A DNA stretch of 64,000 nucleotides from Diplolepis rosae. Taxonomy: Eukaryota > Arthropoda > Insecta > Hymenoptera > Diplolepididae. Both the position numbers and the translations under genes were made by a program. Each line of letters starts with the position of its first letter. The first letter of the stretch is position 1. The notes under the pieces were generated by a model. That model worked only from the letters and a program-made list of their open reading frames with translations, did no database searches and was not told the origin of the DNA. The stretch covers positions 4,716,501 to 4,780,500 of the forward strand of contig JAPYXD010000391.1 in assembly GCA_030998225.1 (NCBI GenBank), read 5' to 3'. Below are positions 17,941 through 63,660 of this stretch, one piece after another.

Positions 17941-18614
17941 ATAAATTTGTCTATTAATTCTTCAGGGGATTTGTTATTATTCTTGTTCGTAAAAGTGTTA
18001 ATTTGATTCGTAGTTGGTTTAATTAAAGTACTAGTCATTGTGATTTCTTCAAAATCTTCTAGCATAACTATAGGAGTTTCTATTTCTATAGGTATAGAAA
18101 GTATGTTTGCTCCTTTAATATAGGCTTTTCCACCATGATTTTTGACAATAGCATTTCCTGCATATATTCCTTTTTTCAAATTAAGTAAAGGTATAAATCC
18201 TTCTTTTTGATTTGTATTTGAAATTCGGATACAAAGAGTTGAAATTGATCTTGCTGGCAAAATTATGGTCTCCGGATTTCAAAATGGATATTTATTATTT
18301 TGTATTTCTAAGCATTTTGATATATAATTTATATTGACGTCATTATCAGTGAAAAATTCCGATCCTAATACTCCATCTTCTTCTACTGGTACACTATTTG
18401 GAATTAAGTTAAAAATTGTGGGATATCCAAAAATATTGAGAGTTATCTGACCCAATGTATAAACTGGTACACTATTTATACCTGTAAGGCGTAAAATTTC
18501 ATCTTGATTTATTTCCACGTTGTGATCAATTATATTTAGTTTTATTAAATTTTGGCCTGCTCCTGTGTCTATCATCATACGTGCTGGGTTTTTTAGACCA
18601 TCAGCAGATACCAT
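17916..18614 (-). pseudogene. Gypsy-1 aspartic protease and following linker
   Basis: MIDTGAGQNLIK is the retropepsin active site (DTGA). VPVEEDGVLGSEFF is the flap and C-terminal ILG-type motif. A break at about 18261-18279 separates it from the downstream stretch that leads into RT. The Gypsy-2 homologue is at 42046-42137 plus 47450-47700. Confidence 0.82.
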
Positions 18615-18779
18615 AATAGAAGGAATTGGGTTGTCTGAGTGTACATTTATTTTTGTATTTATAATATTCTGATTTGAAGTGGGTGCTGTAAAATGTTTTA
18701 AATGGCCTCCCTCATTGCACCCTGAGCGGGGAGGGGTCTGGAGTATCCCTGGTTCTGTTTCTCAGCTCTTTTATGTTGT

Positions 18780-39349: not shown

Positions 39350-39582
39350 GTCCTAAGTTGAATTCCTAAGTTAGTTTGCCGAATCGTCACACGCGGCGCT
39401 AACTTACCATCACTTCCTGAAAATACACAGTAACATACGAAGAATTTAATAAAAAAAATTTTTTAAATGTATTATTCAATGCCATAAACAAATAAAAGAG
39501 ATTAGACTTTAAATAATAATATTATTTGAATATTTTAAATTAAATTTTCCCCTTTTTATTCATATTAATCTCGTACAAAAAG
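39345..39582. repeat. Foldback element B, copy 2, left part
   Basis: Matches 37198-37440 (same TTAGTGTCCTAAG end). It stops at CTCGTACAAAAA, where Gypsy-2 sequence begins. The continuation of the same family is found 23.8 kb away at 63389. About 100 bp of the foldback and the Gypsy-2 5' LTR are missing at this junction. Confidence 0.7.
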
Positions 39583-39606
39583 ACAAGACTAATTAATAAT
39601 CAAAGT

Positions 39607-40658
39607 ATGTCAAGTGAAAATTCAGAAAAAACTAGCGGGTTTCATTCAAGTTTTTATACAGATTTAAGCATTGTAACCGGATCTAGTAATCAAGATCAAA
39701 CTCTAACGAACGAATTATCTTATTTTGACGAATTCAATTTGCTAAGCTCAACAGTAATAACAATAGATAATAAAACTTTGAAAGAAAGATTGGAAACCTC
39801 ATTGGCACGCGAATCTATAATTAGTAACAACGACAGCGACGACGACAAAAGCGACACGGAAGTCATAGATCAAGATAATCCAGTAATAGTAAATAACGAA
39901 GAAATGTCCGTAGTCATACCCAACAGCCAGCAGGTATCCTTACGCGACGCGCTAGAGGTGGTCCCATTGTTCGACGGAAGCAACCTCCCATTGTCACATT
40001 TTATTGAGGGTTGCATGGAGGCAAAGGCAATGCTACCGACACCTGCAGCTCAAGAAAAGAAAGAGAAAATGTACTTTCCTATGCTGCTAGGATAAAAGAA
40101 ATTGTCGACAAAAGAGCTCACAGGCTCAATAATAATGGTCAGGTAGATAATAATTTTAAAGTAAACGTTGAAAAAGACGTATTTCAATGTTTTATACGCG
40201 GTTTGCGTCCTGAGTTAGAAATTCGTGTTGAAGAAAAGGATACTTTTAAAGAAGTTATTAGCGACAGTATTGATATAGAATGAAGATTGGCTGCAAATTC
40301 CGCACTACGAAGAAATAAAAACATGGATTATTCAAAAAGTGACGAATCAACTAATAATAAAAATAATAAAACAACCCGATTTAACGTAGCACTTGAAAAC
40401 AAAACTATTTGTTTAATTTGTAAAAAACCAGGTCACACAATTGAAAAATGTTTTCATTTAAGTAAAGCTCAAGATGCAGTTCTTGATAATAAACAAAAAA
40501 AATTTTTGCGTCCTAACCAACAAGGATATAGTAATTTCAATGGTCAAAGAAGTAATAATAATAATAATTTTGCAAGAAACAATTACAATAATTATCCGAA
40601 TAACAATTTTTTAAGAAATAAAAATTATAATTTTAATAATGTTACGTCAGAAACGTAA
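39607..40658 (+). pseudogene. Gypsy-2 gag, first part
   Basis: Begins MSSENSEKTSGF. It shares SLRDALEVVPLFDGSNLPLS with Gypsy-1 gag, then loses about 55 capsid residues and shifts frame near 40050, where a second frame continues with VLSYAARIKEIVDKRA. An in-frame TGA lies at 40281-40283. A CCHC knuckle CLICKKPGHTIEKC is at about 40420-40450. An Asn-rich tail runs into the solo LTR at 40640. Confidence 0.85.
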
Positions 40659-41579
40659 CATTTCTCTTTTTAAAAGATCTCCTCGTTTTATGTCAGGATC
40701 AGAAGGATCCTCTCTAAGGGATGAGGAATAGTCAGTGATTGAGAAGGGTTAGGTATATAAAATATATTTATTGACAATTGAAATTATATCAGGTAAGCAC
40801 CATGGAAATGTAAAATAGAATCAAAATTAGAAATACCCTTTTAGTTATCCTGAGTTGAATTGATTGATGATCAATTGAGTCCAGTAAGCGAATGTGGTCA
40901 GTTGAGTGTAACTTGTAATCTTCAGGTAGTTGCAGTTGTATAGTAGATTCGTAATCTAGACGGTTGATCTAGTTGATTCTTCGATCCCAGTTTCGAGAGA
41001 ATTTGGAAGGCGATTCCCCTTCACTTTCTAATGTCGTTGAACTCAGCGCCGAGTTAGAATTCGGGTTGAGTAGCGGTAGAAATCTGGAGAAGCTGGACTG
41101 ACTGGATTGCACTCGCGGTATAGATTCGATGGCACTAGACTGGACTCGCGTTGGTCACATTGTAAAAATCGGACGTGGACTAACTAACTGAACTCGCGGT
41201 GTAAAGATGATGGTACTGGATTGACTTCTCTTGGAACTTTCGCTTTTTCTAGAACTTTGAAAGGTCAAGTATGACGAGTAACATGCTATGACCAGTCGCA
41301 TGTTATTACAAGTCACATGCTATTACAAGTCGCATGTTATGACGGTAGTGTGTTGGTATTGTAGGGCTTCATTCACTTTCTCTCTAGGTCAGTCAATTTG
41401 TTATCATGTGTGGGTATTATAACGACACATGGTAATTTCATATTGATCATCCTATTGATCTGTAGATTTGTCTATAACTTGCGTCGATAAAATCACACTC
41501 GCTGTAATGCTGTCTTGATCCCTTTATTGGTTTCTTAATCTGCTTGTTACTTGTGGCGGTAGAGTCGCGGGACGTCACA
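40640..41579 (-). repeat. Solo LTR (940 bp) of the Gypsy-2 family, inserted in gag
   Basis: Starts TGTTACGTC and ends GACGTCACA on the plus strand, with ATAA duplicated at 40636-39 and 41580-83. Its reverse complement shares both ends with the Gypsy-2 3' LTR (TGTnACGTCCCGCGAC and CATCCCTnAGnGAGGATC). An insertion followed by LTR-LTR recombination explains it. Confidence 0.85.
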
Positions 41580-41581
41580 AT

Positions 41582-41985
41582 AACAACAACAATAATAATT
41601 TGCAAAATAGAAATAATAATTGTAGAAACAATAATAATAATTTTTTACAACAAAGATACAACAATAATAATAATTTTCCTAGAAATTTTTACAATAATAA
41701 CAATAGTGTTAATAATAATAATAGACAATGGAATCCAGGACAGTATAAAAAATTTAACTCAGGACAGTTCCAAAATAGAAATAAATCATATGAAAATAGA
41801 TTTTTACAGAATAATAACACAACAAAATTTAAATTATACAGAAATAATTTGCAATTACTGTAAAAAACCCGGTCATTTAGTACGAGAGTGCAAGATACGA
41901 CCAAATAACCAATCACAAACAGCTCATCAGGAAAACTCCAAAGCTCTCCCCAGCTCGGGTGCACTGAGGAAGGTATAAATCGAGA
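41582..41985 (+). pseudogene. Gypsy-2 gag, second part with second zinc knuckle
   Basis: Resumes the Asn-rich stretch directly after the solo LTR. After a frame change it reaches the CCHC knuckle CNYCKKPGHLVREC at about 41850-41890, the counterpart of Gypsy-1's second knuckle. Confidence 0.8.
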
Positions 41986-42045
41986 ACCACTGGCATCCAC
42001 TTCTAACGATCATACAACAACGACAATAAATATTTGAAATTCCAC

Positions 42046-42137
42046 TTCGATTCCATCAATTATAATATCAACGGAAGGTTTAAAAAATCCAACACACATG
42101 ATGATCGATACTGGTGCTGCTCGAAATTTAATTAAAC
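42046..42137 (+). pseudogene. Gypsy-2 protease, N-terminal part
   Basis: HMMIDTGAARNLIK is the retropepsin active site (DTGA). The reading is cut exactly at TAAAC (42133-42137) by the copia insertion and resumes at 47450. Confidence 0.85.
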
Positions 42138-47449: not shown

Positions 47450-50400
47450 TAAACAAAAGGTTCTCAACCCTGAAGTACCAATAAGTAGCCAAATGTATTA
47501 AAACTTACAGGAATTAATGATTTACCACTTTACACATTAGGACAGGTAAAAATAAACATTTTTCGTTATCCAACGATATTTAACATTATTCCGAATGAAG
47601 TCCCAGTAGAAGAAGATGGAGTATTAGGATCAGAATTTTTTCAAGATAATAGTGTGAATATAAACTATACTTCAAAATGCTTAGAAATTGAGAACCACTG
47701 TTACCCTTTTAAATCTACCAATACAATTACTATTCCAGCTCGTACAGTTACAACATTTTATGTTAATATAAAAAATACAGAAAAGAGTCAAGGGTATGTA
47801 CCTCGATTGCATATCGCAGATGGCGTCTACGTAGGTGACGCAATTGTAAAAAATCACAAGGGAAAAGCTTATTTAAAATTTGCAAATACAAATGAAATAC
47901 CAATAACATTATCCGTCCCAATAGTTAATTTAGAAGATTTTGAAGAACAAGAATGTTATAAACAAATTGAAAAATTGCATAATTTTAAACAATCAAATAA
48001 CGAAGATTTATCAAGTAAAATATTAAATAACTTTTTAAGAACTGACAATTCTGTAATTAAGTCGTGCAACATTTATAATGTAACAGACGAAGACAGAATA
48101 GAATGTATTAAAAAACTTCTTCGATTAGACCATTTAAATCAAGATGAATATGAACATGTAGAAAAATTAATTAAAAATAATGCAGACAGATTTCAAATCC
48201 CAGGAGAACCACTTGAAGCTACTAATGTATTGCAACATTCAATTCAAACTGTAGATGACGCTCCAATTTTTTCAAGACAGTATAGATTTCCCCCAATTCA
48301 CAAGGAAGAAATTACAAGACAAGTCGATGAATTACTAGAAAATAAAATAATCAAGCCCTCACAATCACCATATAACACTCCAGTGTGGATAGTTCCTAAA
48401 AAACCTGATTCTCAAGGAAAAATAAAATGGAGAATGGTTCTTGATTTTCGTAAATTAAATGAAAAAACAATTGGCGATTCGTATCCTCTACCTAATATAA
48501 ACGATATACTTGATTCTCTAGGATCAGCAAAATATTTTTCAGTGTTTGATTTAGCTACCGGTTTTCACCATATAAAAATGGACCCAAAAGACTCACATAA
48601 AACCGCGTTTTCTACAGGTCACGGTCATTACGAATTCGATAGAATGCCTTTCGGTTTAAAAACTGCACCAGCCACATTTCAGAGATTAATAGATTTAACA
48701 TTAACTGGATTAATCGGAACGGAACTTTTTGTATATCTCGATGACATAGATATATATGCAAATACTCTAGAAGAGCACGAAATTAAATTTAACAATTTAG
48801 CAGAAAGACTTAGAAAAGCAAATCTTCACTTACAATCAGACAAATGCGAATTTTTACGACCTGAAGTAGGATATTTAGGTCATGTAATTGATAAAAATGG
48901 AGTACGTCCAGATCCAAAAAAAATAATAGCTGTAAAATACTTTCCAGTCCCAAAAACACAGAAAAATGTTGAAAATTTTTTAGTTTTAGCAGGATATTAT
49001 AGACGATTTATTGATGGATTTTCAAAAAAAGATATACCTTTTAATTGGACAGAAAAACAACAAGCAGCTTTCGAAATTTTAAAAGCAAAATTATGTGAAG
49101 AACCACTTTTACAACGACCTGATTTTTCTCAACCTTTTATACTCACAACAGATGCCTCAGGATTTGCAATAGGAGCTATTTTATCACAAGGTAAAATAGG
49201 TAAAGATAAGCCAATAGCATATGCTTCACGTAGTCTAAGTGATACTGAGAAAAAATATGATACATATGAAAAAGAAGCTCTTGCTATAATATTTTGTATA
49301 ACTCATTTTCGTCCTTATTTGTATGGAAGAAAATTTACTTTAGTGACTAATCACAAACCTCTAGTTTGGTATCAAAATTCTAAAGACCCTTGTTCACGAG
49401 TTTCTCGTTGGAGATTGAAACTCGCAGAATATGATTTTGATGTAATTTACAAAGCAGGAAAAATGAATGTAAATGCAGACGCTCTCTCAAGAAACCCTAT
49501 TGACGATAACAAAGAGAAATCAAGATATTTACAAGTTGATGACAATGATACTTTTATGACTTCTCAAGATAAAATGTTTCCCAAGAAAACCTTTACAAGA
49601 AATAAACAAGAAAACTCTGAAAATGAGTTAAAACCTTCAAAACGAAGAAAATTGAATCCAGAAATCGTACCAGACGACGTAGATCATTTTGGCGAAATTT
49701 CAGATTCCCAAATATTAAATATTGACTCAAAAATTCCAGAATTTTTACAAGAATTTCTTAGTGAAGAATTATTTATTGAGATTGGTAAAAATATTTCAAA
49801 ATACACAAATTTATTCAAAAATATGGCTTCAAGACTTATTTTTATGACAATATTTTTATTAAGTCCAATGTTTTCCAAAAAATACGAAAATTTATCATGG
49901 AAAACTATTACAACAAGAGCTCAAAAGAGAATAGAGCAAGAAAAAGCAAAAAATTGGAATCGAAATGAAACTCAAGAAAAATTAGACGAAAATTTTTCTT
50001 CTAAACCTCTTGTGAAAAAATCACGAGGTAGGCCAAGAAAAAATCTACTAACAAATGTAAAAAATATTCCCTCTCAAATAAAAAGAAAGAGAGGCAGACC
50101 AAGAAAACAAATATATGAAAATGAATTACCAGAAATAAGTATGCAAAAAGGAAACCAAACAAAAGTAGAATCAGATTCCGAATCTGATCCTGATTATTTA
50201 GATTATTTGAAACAAACTCAAGCAAAAAACAGAAAGAAGAAGAATGCCAAGAAGCCAAAAAATATTAATGAATTTGAAAGCGAAGAAAGTGAGAATTATT
50301 TTTCAACCTCAGAAGATGAATTCAATGGAATTGAAACCTTACACGAAGAAAATGATGGAGAAAATTATGAAGAAAATTTGAAAGTGAATTTTGAAGATGA

Positions 50401-50830
50401 TCTTGAAGACAATTTCGAAAAGAATTTCGAACAGAATTTTGAAGAAAAATTTGATGACAATCTTGAGGAAAATTTTGAAGAGAAGTTTGAAGAAAACCAA
50501 GAAGATATTTTAGAAGAAGAATTTGAAGAGCCTTATTTTAATGAAAATTTGAAACTAAACCGAAGATCTCAAATAAACTCTGAAAAAATCGATAATGAGC
50601 ATGATAATTATAATCGTCCTCCCCCAGAACCTCCTCCTATAAACTCTCAAACAGAAAAAATTATAACAAGGAAAAGTTTAGTTGAATGTCGCGATCAATT
50701 AACTATGCGAAAAGATAATTACGCATATTTTGATACAACAAATGGATCTCCTCGCGACAACGGATCAAAAACATTAGAAAAACGTGAAACATTACCAAAA
50801 TTTACAAAAGGGAATAGCAAAAGAGATTAA
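47450..50830 (+). CDS. Gypsy-2 pol: protease end, RT, RNase H, AT-hook/acidic spacer
   Basis: The protease resumes at 47450, is frameshifted until about 47650, then the frame is open for 1058 residues from 47654. RT spans about residues 205-400, with RMVLDFRKLNEKT, FSVFDLATGFHHIKM, FGLKTAPATFQRL and the catalytic YLDD (about 360-363; YLDDIDIY where the family usually has YLDDIVIY). RNase H starts FILTTDASGFAIG (about 493) and ends DALSRNP. The spacer has two AT-hooks (RGRPRK, about 791 and 812), an acidic repeat of EENFEE-like units (about 895-965), PPPEPPP and CRDQLTMRKDNYA. The frame is lost at 50830 and integrase continues in another. Confidence 0.9.
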
Positions 50831-52140
50831 AAAAGGAAACTACTACCATTTTGCACTTCCCATTGAAGAAGAAACTAAGGACAATTTATCAGAAACTTTA
50901 AATAATATAAAATTATCAATTCACTCATTACATGAATTATCTCAAAAATTTAAATTACGATCAATTAGTATTTCAAAAACTTCCAGAATTAATCATATAC
51001 CTTGGGAAGAAGTGAAATCAATTTTCGATTCAATTTTTTCAAATTCAACTACAAAAATTATTGTTTGCAATGGAATAACGCAATATCCAACAAAGGAACA
51101 ACGAACTCATTTAATTGAAGAAGCTCATTCTTCAGCACTAGGAGGCCACAAAGGCGTCACAAAAACTTATAGCCGAATTCGCCAAAAATTTTTTTGGGAA
51201 AATATGAAAGTAGACGTTCAAAAATATATCCAAGGCTGTTTACAATGTCAACTGAAAAAATTAATCAGAGTCAAAACAAAAAATCCTATGGTAATCACTG
51301 ACACACCCACTTCTGCTTGTGAAAAAATATCAATGGACATTGTTGGTCCACTACCTGAAACAAAATCTGGTAACTTATATATTCTAACGATACAAGACAA
51401 TTTTACAAAATATTCTTTAGCAATACCTCTTCCTAATCACCAAGCTAGTACGATAGCATATGCTTTCGTGAAAAAATTTATTTGCATATTTGGATCACCA
51501 AAAGGAGTACTTACTGACCAAGGTAGAGATTTTTTAAGTAACCTATTGAAAAGATTGGCAAAACGTTTTAGAATTAAACAATTTCGTACCATACAGCTTT
51601 TCACCATCAATCAAACGGATCATTAGAACGTTCACATCATGTTTTAGGAGAATATCTCAAACAATTTGTTGCAAAAAATTCAGAATGGGATGATTGGCTT
51701 GAACTAGCAATGTTCTCGTATAATCGAATCTCGTACATGAAGGCACAAAATGCACACCCTATGAATTGGTTTTTGGTAAACTAGCTTGTGAACCTTCCAG
51801 TGAACCTTTATCACAACAAGAAAAAGTACAAACATATGACGATTATTTAATTAATTTCGTAACACAACTACATGAAATGCGAACACAAGCAAGAGAGAAT
51901 CTTATTTTAGCAAATGAAAAATCGAAATTATATTATGATAAAAAAATAAATCCTTTAGAAGTAAAAATTGGAGATAACGTATTTTTATTAAAAGGAGGTA
52001 AAATTAAAAAACTTGACAGCCACTATACAGGGCCTTATGAAATATTGGAAGTGTTAGGAAAAGGGAATGTATAAACATAAGCTTTAAAGGCAAACCTACT
52101 CTAGTTCACATTAATAGACTAAAACGCTCACATTTGCGAG
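50784..52140 (+). pseudogene. Gypsy-2 integrase, frameshifted
   Basis: 50784-51626 carries the HHCC zinc region (EEAHSSALGGHKG and CLQCQLKKL), first Asp in SMDIVGPLP and second in LTDQGRDFLSN. A frameshift near 51595 moves the catalytic-Glu segment (LERSHHVLGEYL) to another frame. A further shift near 51735 leads to 51766-52074. A last stop falls before the C-terminal VHINRLKR. Inactive. Confidence 0.88.
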
Positions 52141-52204
52141 TACAAAAGTAAATAAATAAAAATAAAAATAAAACATCTGTACTTTAATTATAAAAAGAAA
52201 ATTT

Positions 52205-52384: not shown

Positions 52385-52666
52385 ATGGAACAAATTCATC
52401 GCAAACGCATAGATGATCTCATTGAAATAGTTACCTGTTTTATCGACATGGTAGCTCTCTGGCCACACTTAATTCAAACTGGAATTTTTAAGCAAGATGG
52501 CTGTAATATTCCCACATGGAGCAGAAACCTAAACAATCCAGACATAATAAAAGACATTTTTTCAACAATCAAAACAAGAGGACTGAACGCATACAAAAAT
52601 TTTATTCTCAGTTTACGGCTATCAAATCACATTGTCATAGCCGACATGTTGGATATAATGAACTAG
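52385..52666 (+). CDS. CARD (death-fold) protein of Gypsy-2, 93 aa
   Basis: The whole open frame is one caspase-recruitment-type domain. Helix 1 is HRKRIDDLIEIVT (5-17), helix 2 DMVALWPHLIQTG (21-33), helix 3 starts IFKQDG (34-39), helix 4 PDIIKDIFSTIKTRG (52-66), helix 5 LNAYKNFILSLR (67-78) and helix 6 IVIADMLDIM (83-92). The TRG-x2-AY-x2-F pattern at the helix 4-5 turn and the spacing throughout are those of Dronc and caspase-9 CARDs. CARDs pair with other CARDs, for example Dronc with Dark. A solo CARD without protease could act as a dominant inhibitor of apoptosome assembly (inference). It follows an acceptor-like TTATTCCAG at 52379. A remnant occurs at the same place in Gypsy-1. Confidence 0.78.
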   Translation: MEQIHRKRIDDLIEIVTCFIDMVALWPHLIQTGIFKQDGCNIPTWSRNLNNPDIIKDIFSTIKTRGLNAYKNFILSLRLSNHIVIADMLDIMN

Positions 52667-52809
52667 GAACGCAAAATACAAAAAGTAAATCAGTAACTCC
52701 AAAAATATACATATGTAACGATAAAATATTTTCCTATTCTTATATTACAAGCAAGCTGCTAATTGAGCACTTGGATCATAAAAGGTCCTCTCCGCGCGAA
52801 ACCCGGTAA

Positions 52810-52995
52810 AAGTATTGTCCAATGTGAAAATCGAAGGATGAAAATTAATTTTCGTGAAATCGTAAAAAAAATAATACGCAAATACTACTTCAGGTAAAGA
52901 CCACAATAATACAAACACAACTCTTTATCCTTACTCTGAACTAAAAGAAGAACTTAGTAGAACCCACTACTCTATCCAAATCTAACATCTTCAGA
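52810..52995. other. Short spacer before the tandem-dsRBD ORF
   Basis: No ORF. It ends in the acceptor-like ACATCTTCAG (52994) one base before the next ATG. Confidence 0.5.
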
Positions 52996-53733
52996 ATGTC
53001 GCATGTTCCTTTTACAACCTTACTAAACAAAATTATTCAACAAAGAGGAGATCCACCCCTCATTTATGAGATACTCATTGAACAAACCAATAATAATGAA
53101 TGTCTATTTCACGTTAATTTACAATATTAAAATTATATAATAATGAATAGAGGCAAAGATAAAGAAAATGTAAAGCAAAAGGTAGCACAAAATTTATATA
53201 ATGCCTTAATTAATGAATCAAAGGAAACAAATCAAAACATCCAACCAAATTCTATTAGTAAAAATTGCAAAAAATTAAACGAAATTTGCACTCAAAATAA
53301 ATTTGAGTAACCAAAATATACAGTATTACGAATCAAAACCTCATCAAAAGACTCAACATACATAGAAATTTGTTTCATTAACAACATAAAACAAATAGGA
53401 ATAGCAAACTCGATAAAAACAGCTAAGGATTTTGCTGCCATAAAAGTTATTAATTCTCTTTCACAGAAAGACGAGAAATGTGATCTAAGTTTGATAAACT
53501 CACTAGAACTTTTGCATGTAACAATTCAAGAATCATCTATAAACGATCCAAAACCTTCAACGAGTAGCCAAATAACAAAACCTATTACTTCAAATAACAA
53601 TCGTGATAAAAATACAAATTCATATAAAATGAAAACAAATAATAATCATACTGCATCATCTTTCTCTACGAAAAGCTTTAAAAAATGTTTTAAATGCGGA
53701 TATAGACCTCCCAACCAATACAATAAATTCTAA
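52996..53733 (+). pseudogene. Tandem dsRBD protein of Gypsy-2, two in-frame stops
   Basis: One frame of about 246 codons with TAA at 53128-53130 and 53308-53310. The first dsRBD starts TTLLNKIIQQRGDPPLIYEI (helix 1, strand 1) and continues through FHVNLQY; after the first stop comes helix 2, ENVKQKVAQNLYNALI. The second starts KKLNEICTQNKF; after the second stop come PKYTVLRI, YIEICFINN and helix 2 NSIKTAKDFAAIKVINSL. A linker and a half-knuckle CFKCG end the frame. Two dsRBDs in a row recall R2D2, Loquacious and TRBP. Family function: dsRNA binding, often beside Dicer. Both stops fall inside domains, so they look like decay. Confidence 0.7.
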
Positions 53734-53770
53734 TATAAACATTCCATATCGATTCAGGAAATCAACTGCA

Positions 53771-54355
53771 ATGGAGCATTACTACGACGAGCCTACACAC
53801 GTACCAAGTTACCCAAAAAAGAAATACAGAACAGACTCCATGGGATTTTTAAATCATGGAGAAAATTTAAGAAACTTCACGATAAAATATGGATTGCCGT
53901 TACCGCAATATACAGTCTATCCTGACCCAAATTCGAAAACAAAGTCATTTTTTCTTGCACAAATTAATATAAATGAACATTTTGTTATACGAGCCGGCTC
54001 TACTAGAGAATTAGCAGAAAATAGAGCAGCATTAAAATTATTGTTACTACTAATGAGGTCATACGATCTCTGCGACGAAAAATTCTATAATAATGATAAT
54101 AAAAAAATGCAAAAAACCAAAAATCAAAGTATTCAAACCGATCCAAGACCAAAATTAATACCTTGGGAAAATTCCTGTAGATTTTGTAACACTCAAATGC
54201 ATGCTACAAAAAAGTGCCGTAGACGAAATATTTTCAAAGTAGACAAATCAACCCAATTTCCCCCTCCAGTTCCACCAAGAAACTCTTCAAAATTTAGTAG
54301 ACTTTTTTCCCCTTTTCTCCAAAAAACTTCTAGACCTAATTCCAACCTTATGTAA
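53771..54355 (+). CDS. dsRBD plus CCHC protein of Gypsy-2, 194 aa
   Basis: Residues 31-95 form a dsRNA-binding domain: helix 1 NLRNFTIKYGL, then PLPQYTVYPD, FFLAQINI, FVIRAGSTRE and helix 2 AENRAALKLLLLLM. The usual KKxAK is replaced by TRELAE, so RNA affinity may be weak or changed. Residues 136-149 are a perfect C-x2-C-x4-H-x4-C zinc knuckle (CRFCNTQMHATKKC), followed by an Arg/Lys cluster and a Pro-rich tail. The ATG is 13 bases after an acceptor-like CGATTCAG (53757). Likely nucleic-acid binding. The frame is open and ends 59 bases before env. I know no named homologue. Confidence 0.75.
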   Translation: MEHYYDEPTHVPSYPKKKYRTDSMGFLNHGENLRNFTIKYGLPLPQYTVYPDPNSKTKSFFLAQININEHFVIRAGSTRELAENRAALKLLLLLMRSYDLCDEKFYNNDNKKMQKTKNQSIQTDPRPKLIPWENSCRFCNTQMHATKKCRRRNIFKVDKSTQFPPPVPPRNSSKFSRLFSPFLQKTSRPNSNLM

Positions 54356-54414
54356 ACATCCTATTTTATCCAATATTAATCCTACTTTTCTTTTTCAGCC
54401 TTCCGAGAAGCCTA

Positions 54415-56256
54415 ATGAATTTCTTTAATCAACTAGCATCCAGACTGTATTTAATTTTAATTCCACTCCTTTTCTCCAAAGCAGAAAAGCACTTCATAGA
54501 CTCACAATTTTCTCATTCTTCAGGGATTTATTTTGAACCAATTTCAAAAGTTCGTCTTTTTTCTGAAAAATATCATTTTATATCTTATATCGATATCTTT
54601 CAGCCAGACGTACTTAAATACAAAATAATAGATTTCTCACATAAATTATATGAATATTGCATACTTTCAAATATTGCCAATAATTGTAAGTTATGCGATC
54701 ATCAGACACAACTTGATTTTATAGAACAACGAATCAACTATTTTCTTGAAGAAATATCATTTATATCTAGACAAGCTCGCAATATCACGAATATTTCTAA
54801 AACTAATGATCCATTCTTGCAACAGATACAAAAAGTACTTTAAGAATTGAGAATGAGACAGGAAACCTCCCTTTACTGGCCCAAAGAAAATTTATTTCTA
54901 CTTCCAAACCCATTTTTCCAAAAAGTTACAAATCTTTCTTCAAAACTTGACAACATTATGACCTACAAAAAATGGCATAATTCTCAAAAAGATCCAAATA
55001 TTCACCCATATCGAATATTAGCAGCAAATTGGCTTAAAGACCTGCATGAAATTTCTCAATCATTCCTTTTACTCCTTGACCAACTGACAGAAGCTATTAC
55101 CCATGCCGCAACTAATTTATGGCACCCTATGCTACTTCCTGATACCTTCTTAGACTTCAAATCCAACAAAGAAGACCCACACCTTTCAACATCCCTTTTG
55201 TCTATGGTCCTTCCATTTTCTAAAATACAATACTTCTTATTCGATAAGTACTTGATTTTTATTATGACTATTCCAATCCCATCTGCTGAAGAATTTCAAT
55301 TATTTAAGCCACATCCAATTCCAATACATCTCGATTTTAATACTGACGTAATTTCCTCTATTTACATAAAACCTCAAAATTCTTATCTCGCTATTTTTTC
55401 AAATAACCAATCATACTTTACAACAAATCAAAATATCCTCAATGCATGTTATCAAAATGGATTCCAAACATTTTGTCATCCACCAAGATCTATATCTAAT
55501 ATCGATAACAATCCAATTTGCGAAACATTAATGTTTATAAATTCTCAACCATACAAGTGTGAAATATTCATCAGTTTTAGTGAATATCCCTTTCTAACAC
55601 CATTGCAACTTCATCATGGATGGCTATACTCAACTATTTCCCCCCGACAAATTTTCTTATCATGTCGAAAAAACTCTACGACCTTAATCACACTCCAAGG
55701 AATAGCAATTTTGCAAACAAAGTCAGGTTGCAATCTCGATTCATCAACTCCATATTACCATCTTCAAAACCATTTGAATATAATGGATAATTCAATTCCA
55801 TTTAGCAAATCAACCACTTCTCTTGCTATAATTTCACCATTTTTATATAATATCTGTATTCAAGAGTCTCACTTACTAAAAAAGGTATTACTTCTTCTTA
55901 AACAAAAAGAAGACATGCCATTATCAATCTTCGAAAACCATGTCTTTATCCTTACAAAATATGCTAACATTCAAAAAATCATTCCATCTATTTTTATGTC
56001 TAGTGCACATAAATTAACATTAGCACTAATTATTATCACTTTACTTATGATTACAATTTTAGGATTAATACTATTGAATATTCAAAAAATATCTAAAAAA
56101 AATAAACAAGACGCCAACACGTATAGAACTTATACAAAAAACTCCTTTAAGCTCAGTGACAAAACCTTTACTGACCGACTTGACATTCAACTTTTGACCT
56201 TTCCTTTATACTATCTTCCTTTTACCCTTTTTTATATAGACTCAAAGTCACCTTAG
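54415..56256 (+). pseudogene. Gypsy-2 envelope (errantivirus/baculovirus-F type), one stop
   Basis: 613 codons in one frame, broken by a TAA at 54841-54843. The N-terminus is a hydrophobic signal peptide. GIYFEPISKVRLF and YHFISYIDIF match the start of errantivirus Env. The middle has scattered Cys (CHPP, C.ISF, LSCRK, GCNL) as in F-type ectodomains. A single hydrophobic anchor LTLALIIITLLMITILGLIL lies near codon 540, followed by a Lys-rich tail. I could not see a clear furin site. Env of this type gives insect endogenous retroviruses their route between cells. An acceptor-like CTTTTTCAG sits at 54398. The stop and the lost 5' LTR make it non-functional here. Confidence 0.75.
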
Positions 56257-56541
56257 AAACTTTTTCAGATACAGGCACATTCCGTCCTTACCTTCCTCAA
56301 AACCACGTGCATGAACGTTGTAAATCCTATACCGTCAGAAGGACAGTTTTTGTAACCACGCCTTTAATATTTCTTACAAAAAAAAAAAAAACTGTAATAT
56401 AAAAGTTGTTTTTCTGACGGAAAGTAAAATATTTTTAGCAAAATCTTTTACCTTGCATGATTAGAAAATGTATACAAAGTTATTATTCAACCTCCTTATC
56501 AGACCTTGATAAAATAAATCTATTCTAACAATTTGTAGAAA
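56257..56541. other. Spacer between env and zinc-finger ORF
   Basis: Non-coding, with an A-run near 56380. A short inverted motif (TCAGAAGGACAG and CTGTAA...TTTTTCTGACGG) lies around it. It ends in the acceptor-like AACAATTTGTAG (56538). Confidence 0.4.
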
Positions 56542-56856
56542 ATGATACCAACTCCAAGTGAACCTATTGTTAACCATCTTGAACTAGTAGACGGTGTATG
56601 TCCGCAAGACTATCCGATAGCATACGCGCACTTATTACAGAGTTATTGTTTCGAATTAGAGCCCTCAACATTGTTTTTATATTATAATCACCAAACCACA
56701 AAAAGATATTGTCAATTCTGTTTCGAGAAATTAGATCAGGAAACTCAAAATAACTGTGAATTTTCTACTTCATGGCATTCCATTTGTAAATTGGAATGCA
56801 TATATATGAATTGTTACGGTTGTCAAGAACTAGTAACATTAAGTAACATTAAGTAA
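56542..56856 (+). CDS. Zinc-finger module of the Gypsy-2 zf-dsRBD gene, 104 aa
   Basis: Cys/His-rich C-terminal half: YCQFC, then WHSICKLEC, then CYGC. This is the same CxxC ... WHSI ... CxxC layout as residues 4-42 of the Gypsy-1 protein at 13243-13752, with an extra N-terminal extension of about 55 residues. The dsRBD that follows directly in Gypsy-1 is here 0.6 kb downstream (57446-57610), beyond a SINE. GTAACA after CQEL and an acceptor at 57436 could make the interval an intron, or the gene may simply be split by insertion. Confidence 0.65.
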   Translation: MIPTPSEPIVNHLELVDGVCPQDYPIAYAHLLQSYCFELEPSTLFLYYNHQTTKRYCQFCFEKLDQETQNNCEFSTSWHSICKLECIYMNCYGCQELVTLSNIK

Positions 56857-57142
56857 CATTACCCGTCCGAATAGATCACATAGTTACTAAAGACTTATAT
56901 TGTACGTTAAAACTTTTATACCTATTAGTAACTTTTGTTAAAAAAAATTTTTTCCTTTTTTATTTTTATTCGTTATTTAAAATCATATTGCATCACAACT
57001 ATTTTAACCGCCATAATGTAACGACAAACTTTAATAAATTAAAATTTTCTTAAAAACAGACCACTGTTTTCTTTGCATGAAATATCTCTTTGAGTTAGGA
57101 AACGCGGAAAGTGAATATATCAAAAAACACAAAATTATTAAC
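56857..57142. other. Interval between zinc-finger module and SINE
   Basis: Starts with three copies of AGTAACATTA. AT-rich, non-coding. Possibly intronic to the zf-dsRBD gene. Confidence 0.4.
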
Positions 57143-57373
57143 GTAGGCAGTGACAAAAATTTCAAACTCAACTAATTAATTTAAAATCATTTACAGCCGC
57201 AAGGCTGAGCCACTAGGCGATATAAGGAGATCTTCCTGTGGAGAAGGAGATGTCGGACGCCTGTGTAGCTCAGTGGTTAGAGCAGTCGACCGGCAATCGA
57301 AAGACCTGGGCTCGAATCCCAGCGCAGTCGAAAGCGTCATTTTTTCCACGGAAAGATTTTCAAATTCTTTAAA
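57143..57373 (+). repeat. Single copy of the tRNA-derived SINE
   Basis: From GTAGGCAGTGAC to TTTCAAATTCTTTAAA. It contains the A box, B box and tRNA-like head at about 57260-57330. It ends at the same point as the array at 12736, which helps to define the true 3' end of the SINE. Confidence 0.8.
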
Positions 57374-57430
57374 AAAAACTAACTTTAGAATTTCAATCAA
57401 TTCAATCATCAACTCAAACAGGTAATTCTT

Positions 57431-57631
57431 TTGCAGATCAAAACAATGGCCTTGCAGACAAGAGACCTATCGGAAGGCACTGCTATACAAGTTTTAAACG
57501 AGATAAGCATTGAGTATGATTTCTCCGAACCCTCATATATTGTAAAATCGCTTGGAAAACACCAAGAACTGCCACCGTTCCAAGCAACTTGCGAAATCTT
57601 TAAAAATTACAGATTTTATCTTTGTCGTTAA
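57431..57631 (+). pseudogene. dsRBD of the Gypsy-2 zf-dsRBD gene, cut off by the Penelope insertion
   Basis: AIQVLNEISIEYDFSEPSY and PPFQATCEIFK correspond to Gypsy-1 MQLINELSIEYDFIGPNY and PTFVANCTVIK (helix 1 and strands 1-2). Homology stops at about 57610, where the Penelope-like arm starts, so helix 2 with KKxAK is lost. An acceptor-like ATTCTTTTGCAG ends at 57436 and the first ATG is at 57446. Confidence 0.75.
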
Positions 57632-58222
57632 AATTCTATAATATTTAAAAAAGGAAAATTATAAGAATAACCAACCTAAACATTCTATAAAAATAAGTAT
57701 AAAAGTAAAACTAAATGCCAGTAATTTTTGTCAAATTGTCTTATAACTTCAAAGTACATGTCACGATTGTTATTTTTAGATACAGAAGTCACAAATAATT
57801 CATAACGAACAGTTGTCGAAATCCTTTTTACAACACAAAGAAGTCAAAATTATTGATTACATATTTTTATCACTTTTTATCACAAAGGAAATGTAATTAC
57901 AAAATTATTGTTACTATAGATGTACCTTAACTTCATATTTCTTAATTTATAACTTATGTAATCAGACTGTGGCTTCACTGAAGCTAATATCAGTATACTG
58001 AGAAATACTAAGCTGAAATCTATATGTGACAAATTTGACAGTGCCGTTATAATGGAAAACCACTTTATAATAATAAATTAAACCTATTTTAAATTTAACA
58101 TTTTTTTAAGAATGTAGAATCAAAAATATAAGTTTGTAATTAAATTGATGTAAAAATAAAATTCTACGTGAGCTGATCTAAAACAATGTCATAAGAAGTG
58201 TTATAATCTTTCAAGTCAGACA

Positions 58223-58531
58223 TCACATGAATACTATTTTTCCTTCTTTTTTTATGTAAAACATTTCTGCAATTATTCTTTTAAAATAATTTGTTTCTTT
58301 GTGTAAAATTGTTATGTTATCCCAATCAAAATTGTGTTGAGATCCTGTGTCATTTTTATTATTTATCCTATGTTTTGTAACAACATTATGGTATTTTTCA
58401 TTTAAATTAATGTTTTTTTTATGTTCATCACATCTGACAAAAATCATTCTTCCCGTTTGGCCTACACACGTTTTTGAACAATCCAAGCATGGAATCCTAT
58501 AAACAACATTTGAAATTTCAAATTTTTCCAA
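58223..58531 (-). pseudogene. Penelope GIY-YIG endonuclease fragment, inverted copy
   Basis: VYRIPCLDCSKTCVGQTGRM is the GIY-YIG core of Penelope-like elements, with the preceding CxxC. It differs from the plus-strand copy at several residues and has a one-residue insertion near its end. It may be a separate older copy. Confidence 0.8.
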
Positions 58532-58627
58532 TGGGTTTTTTCCTAATTTTATATATTTATCTAATTTTGAAGTGTTTCTGAAAACTGTGGTTATGTTATA
58601 GATTATAATTCAGATTATAATGAGAAA

Positions 58628-60009
58628 ATGTTGCAACTCTTGAATGATAATTCTACTTATAAAAAAATAAATTATAATCCCCTTAAATTAATGAAGAAAG
58701 ATACTTATAAACTGTTAGAGAGTTGGAGGGTAAGGGATTTTTTAGGTAAAAATGTAACAAAAAAAGATATCTCTATAAACAATACAATCTTACCAAGAAT
58801 ATATGGTTTACCAAAAATTCATAAGCAAAAGTTCCCTTTACGTCCAGTGGTTTCACTTATAAATACTCCCACTTATTATATGTCAAAGATTTTTGCAAAA
58901 ATTCTAAAGTTGTCTTTACCAGTTCCAAATTCACAAGTAAAAAATTCGTTTATTTTCAAGGATATCATTTCAAAAACAAAAATTGCAACAGATGACATAA
59001 TGTTTTCACTAGATGTTGTGTCCTTATTTACAAACGTGCCATTTAATTTAGTATTAAACAGTATTAAAAAAAGATGGTGTCTTATAGAAAGTGCTACAAA
59101 TTTCAATATGTTGATGACACATTTTTAATTATTCCTAAGAATAAGATTATAGAAATTCTAAAAATATTTAATTCCTATCATTCACGTTTGAATTTTACAT
59201 ATGAATCAGAATTTGATAACTCTCTTTCTTTTCTAAATCTTTTGATGATCAAAAATGATGATGATGGTACCATTGATACGAATTGGCATAGAAAAAACAC
59301 GTTCTCAGGTAGATACTTGAACTATTTCTCAAATCATCCTCTTAATCAAAAAATTGGAATTATTAAAAATTTAGTAGATACTGCAATACTTTTGTCACAT
59401 GAAAAATTCCATGAAGAAAATATAGAAACAATAAAAAATCTTTTGATGCTTAATAATTATCCCAAAAATTTTATTAATAAACATATCAAAAATAGAATTT
59501 TCCAACTAAAAAATAAAGACAAAAAGTCTTCTTTGATGCTGAACAATTATGAAAGAGAAATAGATTACAAACGTGTAGTTTCTATTCCTTATTATGGAGA
59601 CTTATCTTGTAAGATTAAAAGACAGCTAAAAGATTATAACATAACCACAGTTTTCAGAAACACTTCAAAATTAGATAAATATATAAAATTAGGAAAAGAC
59701 CCATTGGAAAAATTTGAAATTTCAAATGTTGTTTATAGGATTCCATGCTTGGATTGTTCAAAAACGTATGTAGGCCAAACGGGAAGAATGCTTTTTGTCA
59801 GATGTGATGAACATAAAAAAAAAATTAATTTAAATGAAAAATACCATAATGTTGTTACAAAACATAGGATAAATAATAAAAATGACATAGGTTCTCAACA
59901 CAATTTTGATTGGGATAACATTACAATTTTACACAAAGAAACAAATTATTTTAAAAGAATTGCAGAAATGTTTTACATAAAAAAAGAAGGAAAAATAGTA
60001 TTAATGTGA
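58628..60009 (+). pseudogene. Penelope-like RT plus GIY-YIG, deleted and frameshifted
   Basis: 58628-59128 has RIYGLPKIHKQKFPLRPVVS and LDVVSLFTNVP, the fingers and first catalytic Asp motif of Penelope RT. A deletion then brings in YVDDTFLII (59110, catalytic Asp pair) in another frame. 59074-60009 continues with thumb and connector, then VYRIPCLDCSKTYVGQTGRM and a C-terminal region to IVLM. The missing stretch between motif A and YVDD makes it inactive. Confidence 0.88.
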
Positions 60010-60211
60010 TGTCTGACTTGAAACATTATAACACTTCTTATGACATTGTTTTAGATCAGCTCACATAGAATTTTATTTTTACATCAATTTAATTACAAAC
60101 TTATTATTTTGATTCTATATTCATAAAAAAATGTTAAATTTAAAATAGGTTTAATTTATTATTATAAAGTGGTTTTCCATTACTACGGCACTGTCAAATT
60201 TGTCACATATA

Positions 60212-61623
60212 CACGGAGAAAAATAGTTGAAGTAATTTTACTCAACTCTGTCGATTAAACTTGGGACATAAGGACATTTGAACATCTATTAAATCCTAGT
60301 CGGGTAAAATGAATTTGATATATACCTAATTCACCCAAATCGAATAACAATAAGCGTTACATAGGGAATAGTAAGGAGTTGAGTAAAACGTTATCGACGA
60401 CAGGGCACCAACATGCGTCAGTGGGTTAACATGAGTTTGGTAAAATGAGCATCGGGTGTATTATTTCAACTGGCAATGGTATGGTTCTCTCAAATAAAAA
60501 AAAATTCTTACCTCGAGCCTGCCAATAGTCATCCGGTATATACATAAACAACTTACAAATACATTCACACCATTACGGACGTAGCCAATCATATTTCAAA
60601 TTACAAATTCACTTAAACATATAACCTTACATATATAAACCTACTAACAACACTCATATATAGTACGATACGCTTTCGTCGAATCACGCACACGCTCGCT
60701 TACAATGCTGAGATAGAAAATTTGGAACTTTGTTATATAATGACTGCATGAGTTATTCAGAGCTTGTGAGAGTAAGTGCCGTCAATAAAATTTTTTAGCC
60801 TTACTCAACTAAAAATAAATCGACTTTTTTCATAAATGATTGATAAAATATTTTTAAAAATTAATATAATTAATCAATTATTATAACTATAATTATTGAT
60901 ATATATAATATAATTATTAAATTACATTTAGTATACATTTTTATTATAACGACGTATGAAGTTTAGTGAAACTAAATTTTCAAATATACATTAAAAAATT
61001 GCATTATTATTAAGAAGTATCTTGTATAAAAACATTTAAAAGAAGGTTCTTTTATTTTCTGTGTTTTATATTTTCAAAATATGGATTTTACATTTGCGAA
61101 TTCCAAATTATTATTCTGCCTGAGTAATTTATGTGATATTTCATATTTTATGTAATACACTTATCGACTTTTTTTTGTTTAAATTTTCATAATATCAATT
61201 TAATTTTAAGAATTTAAGTTTTTGAAATTAAAAATTTGTTATGTGTGCCCAAGGCGCAGATTACTTTCATTCGTTCCTGCGTGAATAAATGTAGCTGTTG
61301 GAATAAATCTTGCGATTCACGGTTTACTCAACTCTCGATTGAAGCGTAGAGTAGAATGAACGGAAAGCTCTACTATTTATGATTTAATAAAAGATTGGTT
61401 TTTTATAATTATACTACGAGTAATAATATATATATTTAAAAAATTTTAATGCACGCTTTCATACTTCACCCCACACTTCTGAATTTTACTCAACTTTGAT
61501 TCATTTTCGAACATTTAATATATTACAAATAAATACAGTGATACTAAATAACTTCTAACTTGTCCTTATGTCCCAAATTTGATCGGAAGTTGAGTAAAAG
61601 TACTTCAACTATTTTTCTCCGTG
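60212..61623. mobile_element. Non-autonomous TIR element (1.41 kb) with TA duplication
   Basis: The ends CACGGAGAAAAATAGTTGAA are inverted copies over at least 36 bp, and TCCTTATGTCCCAA lies just inside both. TA is duplicated at 60210-60211 and 61624-61625. Removing one TA and the element restores CACATATAGATTT, as in the inverted Penelope copy near 58018. No transposase. Confidence 0.85.
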
Positions 61624-62039
61624 TAGATTTCAGCTTAGTATTTCTCAGTATACTGATATTAGCTTCAGTGAAGCCACAGTCTGATTACATAAGTTATAAA
61701 TTAAGAAATATGAAGTTAAGGTACATCTATAGTAACAATAATTTTGTAATTACATTTCCTTTGTGATAAAAAGTGATAAAAATATGTAATCAATAATTTT
61801 GACTTCTTTGTGTTGTAAAAAGGATTTCGAAAACTGTTCGTTATGAATTATTTGTGACTTCTGTATCTAAAAATAACAATCGTGACATGTACTTTGAAGT
61901 TATAAGACAATTTGACATAAATTACAGGTATTTAATTTTACTTTTATTCTTATTTTTATAGAATGTTTAGGTTGGTTATTCTTATAATTTTCCTTTTTTA
62001 AATATTATAGAATTTTAACAACAAAGACAAAATCTGTAT

Positions 62040-62218: not shown

Positions 62219-62626
62219 TCTTCTAATCTACGACAGTATAAAATTACGTTTTATATTACAGCATTTTATTTATAATTTACGAATATAAAATAAAAAATCA
62301 TTGATGTATTCAGTTATATAACAAAAATCATATGTAACCTTATGTTAAGTCCTTAATATTTCAAAAAAAAACTATGTAATTAATTATAACAAAAAAAATA
62401 TGATATCAAGATTATACAAATTTTTATGACATAAAAAAAAATGGTCGATATTGAAATGTATCAAATAGTAGAATACAAATTGTAAAACAGACGCCGAAAT
62501 GAATGTTATATTCATCATTCACATTTTGAATTTGAATGTATCTCTTCAAAAACATTAACGAATGTATTCTTCTTCCGAAGATTCGATCGCGGATGCTTCA
62601 CCCCCGCGCTTGAACTAGGGGGGAGG
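62215..62626 (+). other. Gypsy-2 3' untranslated end with polypurine tract
   Basis: The last bases 62617-62626 are a G-rich purine tract directly before the LTR. ATTCGATCG at 62581 is shared with the same region of Gypsy-1 (12990). Confidence 0.7.
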
Positions 62627-63388
62627 TGTCACGTCCCGCGACGCATTAGAATGTACTATAGGCACAGGCTAGGTCTAGAGAGAAATCTGGGGAAATTACT
62701 AAAAGAGAGAGAAAATCATCTATTGAAAAGAGAGGTATAACTTCGTCACACGCAGCGGGAGACTGCGCAACGCGTGACGTCACCAAAAAATATAATATAA
62801 AAAGGACACGCCGCCAAGGGAAAACTAGTCTTGTGAGCAAAATTAAGTGCGGCAAATTTCTAAAATCTTAAAAGGATTCAAAGCGTGAGATACGTGTTTA
62901 GTTCAATTTTCCGAAGAAACGTGTCGTAAATTCTCCGATTGTACTTTCAATCTTTGAAAGGATCTTAGAGTCAGTGTAGAGTGAGATAACTATTCTTGTC
63001 CTCCTCACACCAGTGGGATATTTGTTTCTGTCTTCCTCATACCAGTGGGATACCTATTGCTGTCTTCGTCGCACCAGTGAAAGAATCATTCTCTCTCCCT
63101 CACACCTGTGAGGATCATTCATAAAAAAGGGACTATTCACAATTCAACAAAGGTACCGAAAATTCTCTCTACTTTTTACCTATTCCCTGTGCCATTGTTT
63201 GAATCTTTGTAAAATTTTAACCTTGTTTGTATCTGTGTTAATTCAAATAAATTCAATTTGTATTACTTTACTAATCGTTGTGTTCTTTTCATTGACTTAT
63301 CCTCATCCCTGAGCGAGGATCATTCGATCCTAACTTAAAACGAGGAATCTTCGATCAAAGTAAGTATTTACGTACTTGTGACGTAACA
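62627..63388 (+). repeat. Gypsy-2 3' LTR (762 bp)
   Basis: Starts TGTCACGTCCCGCGAC and ends CTTGTGACGTAACA. It contains three imperfect repeats of a CCTCACACCAGTGGGAT-like unit (about 62999-63115). Both ends match the solo LTR at 40640-41579. A TATAAAA-like AATATAAAAAGG at about 62792 may be its TATA box. Confidence 0.82.
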
Positions 63389-63660
63389 TATAATTTTCTA
63401 CATATGACTGCATTTATATTATTTTTTTGAGGTAAAATTAAGTTGAAAAATGGAACAAAATTGGAAAATTCAGAACAAGAAACGAAGTCCATGAGAGTTG
63501 TAATTGGTTTGAAATCATTATGAATAATTAAAGAAAATAGAATATAAAATAAGGTGAATATTAATTTATATTACAAAAATAGTTAACTAACATTGATAAA
63601 AACAGTATAATAAGAACAATTAAAATTGTGAAAATTAATTATTAGAAACAAAATAGAAAG
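63389..63660. repeat. Foldback element B, copy 2, right part
   Basis: Resumes the foldback arm (matching about 37535-37760, then 37915-37945 after an internal deletion). Shared words include ACTGCATTTATATTATTTTT and AATAATTAAAGAAAATAG. Confidence 0.7.

What the first reader, a model, noticed from the sequence alone, without database searches (positions are those of the whole stretch)
52385..57610. A retroelement cassette of CARD and dsRBD genes beside env
Between integrase and the 3' LTR, Gypsy-2 carries a CARD ORF, a tandem-dsRBD ORF, a dsRBD-CCHC ORF, env, and a zinc-finger/dsRBD gene. Seen: the domain signatures and their order. Established: dsRBDs bind dsRNA and viral dsRBD proteins can block RNAi; CARDs assemble the apoptosome. 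Inferred: the cassette counters siRNA/piRNA defence and cell death, as accessory genes do in complex retroviruses. I know of no Ty3/Gypsy element described with this set.
Basis: partly seen in the sequence, partly recalled or inferred. Interest (0 to 1): 0.96.

Follow-up and report, generated by a model that had tools for sequence, protein, structure and literature searches.

The report
Insect retrovirus-like element with death-domain genes
An abundant insect retrovirus-like element carries, besides two unrelated envelope genes, a small gene resembling the switch of cell-suicide enzymes and three genes for double-stranded-RNA-binding proteins, so it looks equipped to resist the cell's death and RNA defences, though no function has been tested.

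Summary
The window copy is a damaged member of a young, high-copy Ty3/Gypsy family. Two copies measured are 17.6 kb long, with 762-bp LTRs identical within each copy. In more complete copies the genes after integrase are: CARD, a viral glycoprotein (Monjiviricetes_fusion), tandem dsRBD, dsRBD-zinc knuckle, a second unrelated envelope (Baculo_F), two Cys-rich ORFs, and dsRBD-CCHC. The window copy has lost nearly all of the first envelope. CARD and dsRBD pass Pfam cut-offs in sister subfamilies. A CARD profile's best solved matches are Dronc and CED-3. The gene order persists in subfamilies with 26-81% protein identity, and CARD is under purifying selection. A more distant element has the glycoprotein but no CARD (2 copies) and no detectable cassette (1 copy). 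Best explanation: the CARD protein is a decoy for the initiator caspase/apoptosome, and the dsRBD proteins shield element RNA from RNAi. The conserved cassette is shown; the functions are inferred. The main rival is genomic RNA export or packaging by the dsRBD proteins. Listings from an open-access library showed no such element; a key 2025 paper was not readable.

The parts
39581..42137 (+). gag remnants of the element, in three stretches (39581-40058, 40059-40639, 41579-42137); no 5' LTR match found in the window
   Evidence: blastn of upstream locus L056 against the window, 93-96% identity
42133..47348 (-). nested Copia element (its two LTR copies begin at 42133 and 47049; the repeat tool shows 300 bases of each, so the true end may be up to about 47450); not part of the cassette
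   Evidence: direct repeat D5; RVT_2 and Retrotran_gag_2
47450..52145 (+). pol: protease end, RT, RNase H, integrase (frames 47654-50830, 50778-51626, 51724-52074)
   Evidence: Pfam RVT_1, RT_RNaseH, Integrase_H2C2, rve; 94% to L056
52385..52666 (+). CARD ORF, 93 aa, open
   Evidence: PF00619 16.3 bits here, 29.5-30.9 bits in sister subfamilies
52875..52979 (+). remnant of glycoprotein 1 (Monjiviricetes_fusion): its last 35 codons. The rest is deleted; the window matches L040 to its base 636 (window 52765), and the glycoprotein ATG is at L040:656
   Evidence: tblastn 97% over 35 aa; blastn break points in L040-L043; ATG position
52996..53733 (+). dsRBD-A, tandem dsRBD ORF; two in-frame stops (53128-53130, 53308-53310)
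   Evidence: open in L040 with dsrm 7.8e-11
53771..54355 (+). dsRBD-B, dsRBD followed by a CCHC-spaced zinc knuckle
   Evidence: dsrm 22.5 bits, just under the cut-off of 23; knuckle spacing read from the sequence, no Pfam match to it
54415..56256 (+). envelope 2, Baculo_F type; in-frame stop at 54841-54843 and a frame shift between 56010 and 56114
   Evidence: PF12259 8.3e-5 (below cut-off) and 4.1e-17 on the two pieces searched apart
56542..56856 (+). [not shown]
56853..56924 (+). [not shown]
   Evidence: tblastn 92% over 24 aa
57139..57374 (+). inserted tRNA-containing repeat, shared with the array at 10770-12743
   Evidence: the repeat finder D2, I13-I15; absent from this site in 5 of 5 copies compared
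57446..57625 (+). dsRBD-C (dsRBD + CCHC), truncated; the zinc knuckle is lost
   Evidence: tblastn 87% over 60 aa; full ORF in L040: dsrm 6.4e-7, above cut-off; zf-CCHC_3 5.5e-5, below its cut-off
57608..62038 (.). later insertion bounded by 415-bp inverted repeats
   Evidence: the repeat finder I6
62237..63390 (+). 3' non-coding end and 3' LTR (62627-63390, 96.7% to the LTR of copy A)
   Evidence: blastn
13202..18628 (-). [not shown]

Best explanation
This is the accessory-gene block of a large, env-carrying Ty3/Gypsy retroelement (about 17.6 kb) that looks like a complex endogenous retrovirus of insects. It has two unrelated envelope genes, one of the Monjiviricetes_fusion family and one of Baculo_F type. 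It also has a CARD-only protein, a tandem-dsRBD protein, two dsRBD-zinc-knuckle proteins and one or two Cys-rich proteins. Inferred mechanism: the CARD-only protein binds the CARD of the initiator caspase Dronc or its adaptor Dark (Apaf-1-like) and prevents apoptosome assembly, keeping infected cells alive. The dsRBD proteins cover structured or double-stranded element RNA, or occupy Dicer-partner interfaces, and blunt small-RNA silencing. At least the two env ORFs are probably expressed from spliced mRNAs. Shown: gene order, domain identity by sequence, selection on CARD and glycoprotein, recent insertion of two copies. Inferred: the anti-apoptotic and anti-RNAi functions (each about 0.5).
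For: Domains: CARD above Pfam cut-off in 3 of 3 sister-subfamily proteins scanned. A profile of 14 element CARDs retrieves 14 solved sequences at E<=10, 12 of them CARD proteins, best Dronc (0.0036) and CED-3 (0.016), then caspase-9, NLRC4 and RAIDD. dsrm reaches 42.8 and 30.3 bits in L040 and 34.9 in L054. Single-sequence PDB hits of dsRBD-A and dsRBD-C include Loqs, R2D2, Dicer-like 1 and TARBP2, weak at E 0.0012-0.06. dsRBD-C keeps the dsRNA-contacting KKxAK-type motif (recalled) as KKSAK, KKESK and KKEAK in 3 of 3 subfamilies. Cassette: same order in L040, L053, L054, partial in L055, L070 and the window's minus-strand copy. Of 39 CARD loci, 37 have the glycoprotein next to CARD; the other two are the window copy itself and L049, which looks like a host gene. 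Of 12 loci picked from the 68 scored in the glycoprotein search, 11 have CARD just upstream. Selection: CARD omega 0.10-0.26 over 6 pairs, pN<pS in 200 of 200 bootstraps each. Activity: 58 of 150 scored CARD places share one score; 18 of 30 fetched loci encode an identical CARD; LTR pairs 100% identical in 2 of 2 copies measured. Precedent: grouper iridovirus encodes a 91-aa CARD-only protein that inhibits apoptosis (PMC4457926, abstract).
Against: No function was tested and no structure could be predicted. The CARD is below the Pfam cut-off in the window's own subfamily. Alone, the L040 CARD matched only a designed repeat protein in the PDB, the L053 CARD reached caspase-9 only at E=0.14, and the L055 CARD found no CARD. 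A profile of the window's subfamily put Dronc at E=0.99. The single-family dsRBD-A profile found no dsRBD in the PDB at E<=1. dS is near or at saturation in many pairs, and selection on dsRBD-A is weak (omega 0.23-0.74; pN>=pS in up to 24 of 200 bootstraps). dsRBD-A and dsRBD-B lack a full KKxAK motif, so they may not bind dsRNA. Splice-acceptor enrichment is clear only for the two env ORFs, and no leader donor was found.
Confidence: 0.5

Rival explanations
1. The dsRBD-zinc-knuckle proteins serve the element's own RNA: nuclear export of unspliced genomic RNA or its packaging, in the manner of Rev or of CERV of the C. elegans element Cer1, rather than suppression of RNAi. The CARD may still act on cell death or self-assemble as a scaffold.
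For: Two of the three dsRBD proteins also carry nucleocapsid-like CCHC-spaced knuckles (sequence; only weak Pfam support). dsRBD-A, -B and -C match one another by BLAST, suggesting in-element duplication. The env ORFs sit behind strong splice-acceptor-like sites, so export of unspliced RNA would be a problem to solve. Cer1 CERV precedent (PMC10309623, abstract).
Against: A plain export or packaging protein would not obviously need three divergent dsRBD paralogues. The nearest solved dsRBDs are mostly RNAi proteins, though only weakly. One more distant element appears to lack them.
Confidence: 0.3
2. The CARD protein promotes rather than blocks death or inflammation-like signalling, or is a structural polymerising module (for example in particle assembly), with no decoy role.
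For: CARDs are general filament-forming modules (recalled); the nearest matches include NLRC4 and RAIDD as well as caspases.
Against: A free-standing 93-aa CARD without an effector domain could activate caspases only as a nucleator. The tested viral CARD-only protein is anti-apoptotic (PMC4457926, abstract). A retroelement gains little from killing its cell (inference).
Confidence: 0.2
3. The ORFs are chance captures or unrelated insertions of host sequence in one copy.
For: The window copy is broken, nested and contains unrelated insertions. 8 of 8 other rve loci checked within 1.5 kb flanks have none of these genes, but those belong to other families.
Against: The same genes in the same order occur in 5 of 5 other copies (one with a glycoprotein remnant only) and in sister subfamilies, with purifying selection.
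Confidence: 0.01

Closest known systems
Env-carrying Ty3/Gypsy elements (errantiviruses; gypsy, ZAM)
   Same: LTR-gag-pol-env layout, Baculo_F-type envelope, pol order RT-RH-IN, insect host
   Different: 17.6 kb instead of about 7-9 kb (recalled), a second unrelated envelope, and CARD, dsRBD and Cys-rich genes. RT phylogeny not tested
Anakin, BEL/Pao element with chuvirus glycoprotein (PMC7642597, abstract)
   Same: mononega/chu-type viral glycoprotein captured by an LTR retroelement of insects
   Different: Anakin is BEL/Pao; the abstract mentions one glycoprotein and no CARD or dsRBD. PMC10084718 (passages) found no clear capture of such glycoproteins by Gypsy, while PMC13172572 (passages) mentions gypsy elements with type III fusion glycoproteins
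Ant-specific Mono-Chu glycoprotein EVEs (PMC6540820, passages)
   Same: very common mononega/chu-type glycoproteins in insect genomes, unlike known exogenous viruses
   Different: described as EVEs; the present data suggest (inference) that some may be env genes of elements like this one
Iridovirus (ranavirus) CARD protein (PMC4457926, abstract)
   Same: virus-encoded CARD-only protein of about 91 aa
   Different: DNA virus of fish, ICEBERG-like; no sequence comparison with the present CARD was made
CERV of Cer1 (PMC10309623, abstract)
   Same: accessory protein of an LTR retrotransposon made from a spliced mRNA
   Different: acts in genomic RNA export; the abstract names no dsRBD or CARD
Complex retroviruses (lentiviruses, spumaviruses; recalled)
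   Same: accessory genes around env, multiple splicing
   Different: unrelated accessory proteins; here a Ty3/Gypsy pol and two envelopes

Membership tests
Ty3/Gypsy LTR retroelement | gag-pol with order RT-RNase H-integrase between LTRs | tested here: met
   RVT_1, RT_RNaseH, Integrase_H2C2, rve in order; gag frame upstream; 762-bp LTRs
Ty3/Gypsy LTR retroelement | target-site duplication of 4-6 bp and TG...CA termini | tested here: met
   TGTCAC...AACA; CAAA flanks copy A, CTATG flanks copy B (read from the flanks, two copies only)
Errantivirus / env-carrying gypsy | Baculo_F-type envelope after integrase | tested here: met
   PF12259 7.5e-23 in L040, 1.2e-22 in L054, 4.7e-17 in L053
Errantivirus / env-carrying gypsy | RT falls in the errantivirus clade | not tested
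   no reference RT set was at hand
CARD (PF00619) | profile match above the curated cut-off (23.9 bits) | tested here: met
   30.9, 30.3 and 29.5 bits in L053, L054, L055; not met by the window's own subfamily (16.3 and 15.2 bits)
CARD (PF00619) | six-helix death-fold structure | not testable with these tools
   structure prediction switched off
dsRBD (PF00035) | profile match above the curated cut-off (23 bits) | tested here: met
   dsRBD-A 42.8 and dsRBD-C 30.3 bits in L040, dsRBD-B 20.2 not met; 34.3, 31.1, 27.8, 34.9 and 26.6 bits in five sister proteins; dsRBD-B and dsRBD-C of L053 below (14.0, 16.2)
Viral suppressor of RNAi | binds dsRNA or small RNA, or blocks Dicer/Argonaute | not testable with these tools
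   only the KKxAK-type motif in dsRBD-C is consistent with dsRNA binding
Viral CARD-only apoptosis inhibitor | inhibits caspase activation | not testable with these tools
   nearest solved CARDs are initiator caspases
Complex retrovirus-like expression | accessory ORFs reached by splicing | tested here: inconclusive
   strong acceptor-like sites before both env ORFs in 3 of 3 subfamilies (background rank 0.008-0.038); of 16 tests on other ORFs 5 ranked 0.48 or worse; no leader donor found

The most novel reading that the evidence does not exclude
A lineage of complex insect retroviruses of Ty3/Gypsy descent that captured two envelopes from different sources, a Dronc-type CARD from an initiator caspase, and a dsRBD gene that then duplicated into a three-member set. 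Together these disable apoptosis and small-RNA defence and underlie a recent burst in the host genome. It arose from a simpler glycoprotein-only Gypsy ancestor of which a relative survives in the same genome.
Probability: 0.4. Interest if true: 0.95.

Novelty: new variant of a known kind. Interest (0 to 1): 0.88.

Why it matters
Complex retroviruses with immune-countering accessory genes are known from vertebrates. Insect gypsy elements are thought of as gag-pol-env, held down by piRNAs. A young, multiplying insect element with a caspase-type CARD, three dsRBD genes and two envelopes would show that accessory-gene arms races evolved independently in Ty3/Gypsy elements. It would make testable whether retroelements actively block apoptosis and small-RNA silencing in insect germline or ovarian soma. 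It may also help explain why chu/mononega-type glycoproteins are so frequent in insect genomes (inference).
Full report
WHAT IS IN THE WINDOW. The window lies in a 757.7-Mb, 428-contig genome. That genome gives 124 matches to 7tm_6, the insect odorant-receptor family (family-host link recalled), of 127 scored and 353 first-look candidates. The 14 control genomes gave none, but those named are prokaryotes, so they say little. The host is therefore taken as an insect. The finding sits in a damaged Ty3/Gypsy copy. Gag remnants lie at 39581-42137, a Copia element is nested from 42133 to about 47348-47450, and pol-integrase occupies 47450-52145. The cassette then runs from 52385 to 57625, an insertion bounded by 415-bp inverted repeats lies at 57608-62038, and the 3' LTR is at 62627-63390. 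No 5' LTR match was found in the window.

THE DOMAINS. In the window copy the Pfam signals are weak: CARD 16.3 bits against a cut-off of 23.9; dsrm 12.6, 14.3 and 22.5 bits against 23; Baculo_F 62.4 bits on the larger piece, 21.8 (below cut-off) on the smaller. In a more complete copy (L040) dsRBD-A gives 42.8 bits and dsRBD-C 30.3 bits; dsRBD-B stays at 20.2 and the zinc knuckle of dsRBD-C at 23.4 against 27. In sister subfamilies CARD gives 30.9, 30.3 and 29.5 bits. Of 35 aligned CARD proteins scanned (the window's and 34 of the 53 relatives), 24 match CARD at E<=0.1, best 1.3e-5. A profile of 14 element CARDs from several subfamilies matched 14 distinct solved sequences at E<=10, 12 of them CARD proteins. 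The best two are Drosophila Dronc (0.0036) and C. elegans CED-3 (0.016), followed by Caspase Nc, NLRC4, caspase-9 and RAIDD entries; the other two are a xylanase (third, 0.022) and T4 lysozyme. Weaker tests: a profile from the window's subfamily gave Dronc only at E=0.99, behind a designed repeat protein. Alone, L040 gave only that designed protein, L053 gave caspase-9 at 0.14 and L055 no CARD.

AN OUTGROUP. The glycoprotein search gave 2273 first-look candidates; 68 were scored, all 68 above the cut-off. I fetched the upstream side of 12 of these 68 (one cut short by a contig end). CARD is present in 11 of 12, three of them broken or truncated. The 12 are not independent: several belong to subfamilies already seen, and L058/L059/L062 and L063 are further groups. 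The twelfth, L065, has an integrase 60% identical to that of L056. Its integrase frame ends at base 2444 of the oriented locus and the glycoprotein ATG is at 2489, leaving no room for a CARD. A second place of this group (L072) is identical over the 601 bases fetched. L070, downstream of the L058 group, has dsRBD-A, a piece of Baculo_F and dsRBD-C. This suggests (inference) that a Gypsy element with one captured glycoprotein came first and the rest was added later; loss in L065 is not excluded. A control of eight other integrase loci shows no cassette gene within 1.5 kb.

RELATIVES OUTSIDE. The protein collection gave 53 CARD relatives at E<=10 (52 of them below 0.01), 36 dsRBD-A relatives and 118 dsRBD-C relatives at E<=1, all from ENA contigs except one dsRBD-C relative. 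Their hosts are not stated, so the species range is unknown. Two IMG/VR scans found none.

HOW IT PROBABLY WORKS. Shown: the genes exist, are conserved as a block, CARD and glycoprotein are selected as proteins, and two copies are recent. Inferred from family knowledge: a stand-alone CARD nearest to initiator-caspase CARDs would act as a decoy in the Dronc-Dark apoptosome, by analogy with the iridovirus CARD-only protein that inhibits apoptosis (PMC4457926, abstract). dsRBD-C keeps the KKxAK-type dsRNA-contact motif (motif recalled) in 3 of 3 subfamilies and is expected to bind dsRNA; dsRBD-A and dsRBD-B lack it in full and may bind proteins instead. The dsRBD ORFs are related to one another by BLAST, which points to duplication inside the element. 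CCHC-spaced, nucleocapsid-like knuckles follow the dsRBD in dsRBD-C of L040, L053 and L054 and in dsRBD-B of L040, so RNA export or packaging, as for CERV of Cer1 (PMC10309623, abstract), is a serious rival. Splice-acceptor-like sites precede both env ORFs in 3 of 3 subfamilies with background rank 0.008-0.038. Of 16 tests on other ORFs, 5 ranked 0.48 or worse. No donor was found in the leader with the pattern used. A PBS-like stretch lies shortly after the 5' LTR; its match to tRNA-Gly is recalled, not tested.

COMPARISON WITH THE LITERATURE. Abstract of PMC7642597 (chuvirus glycoprotein in BEL/Pao 'Anakin'). Passages of PMC10084718 (Gypsy fragments near such glycoproteins in Hymenoptera, but 'no clear evidence' of capture by Gypsy or Copia), PMC13172572 (type III glycoproteins in gypsy mentioned), PMC6540820 (224 EVEs in an ant-specific Mono-Chu glycoprotein lineage) and PMC12859917. 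Abstract and passages of PMC12440569. What I saw of these describes no CARD, dsRBD genes or two envelopes in one element. The listings of ten searches of the open-access library show none. The eLife 2025 survey of env-carrying gypsy elements was not held and could contain related elements.

VERDICT. It is a new variant of a known kind: a Ty3/Gypsy endogenous retrovirus-like element with a conserved accessory cassette and two envelope genes.

Noticed in passing
[not shown]
   Followed up: partly
L065, L071 and L072 (G000:C154:6470700-6481100; C222:25700-26300): Related Gypsy element with the glycoprotein directly after integrase and no CARD; no dsRBD detectable downstream in the one copy read: a possible simpler ancestor type
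   Followed up: partly
window 57608-62038: Insertion bounded by 415-bp inverted repeats; its ORFs read like a Penelope-type RT with GIY-YIG-like end (recalled resemblance; Pfam found nothing at E<=0.01)
   Followed up: no
window 10770-12743 and 57139-57374: Head-to-tail arrays of a 340-bp unit in two opposite orientations, containing a tRNA-like stretch; a related repeat is inserted in the cassette
   Followed up: no
L049 (G000:C284:24095373-24095615, minus): Non-retroelement CARD frame above the Pfam cut-off, probably a host gene
   Followed up: no
G000 genome-wide: 2273 first-look candidates for the Monjiviricetes glycoprotein (68 scored); abundant 'chu/mononega EVEs' of insects may partly be env genes of such elements
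   Followed up: partly
L040:237-533 and 362-655: The glycoprotein frame is open far upstream of its own ATG and overlaps the CARD ORF in another frame
   Followed up: no
L040/L056 and L043/L057 flanks: Apparent target-site duplications differ in length (4 and 5 bp) between two copies
   Followed up: no
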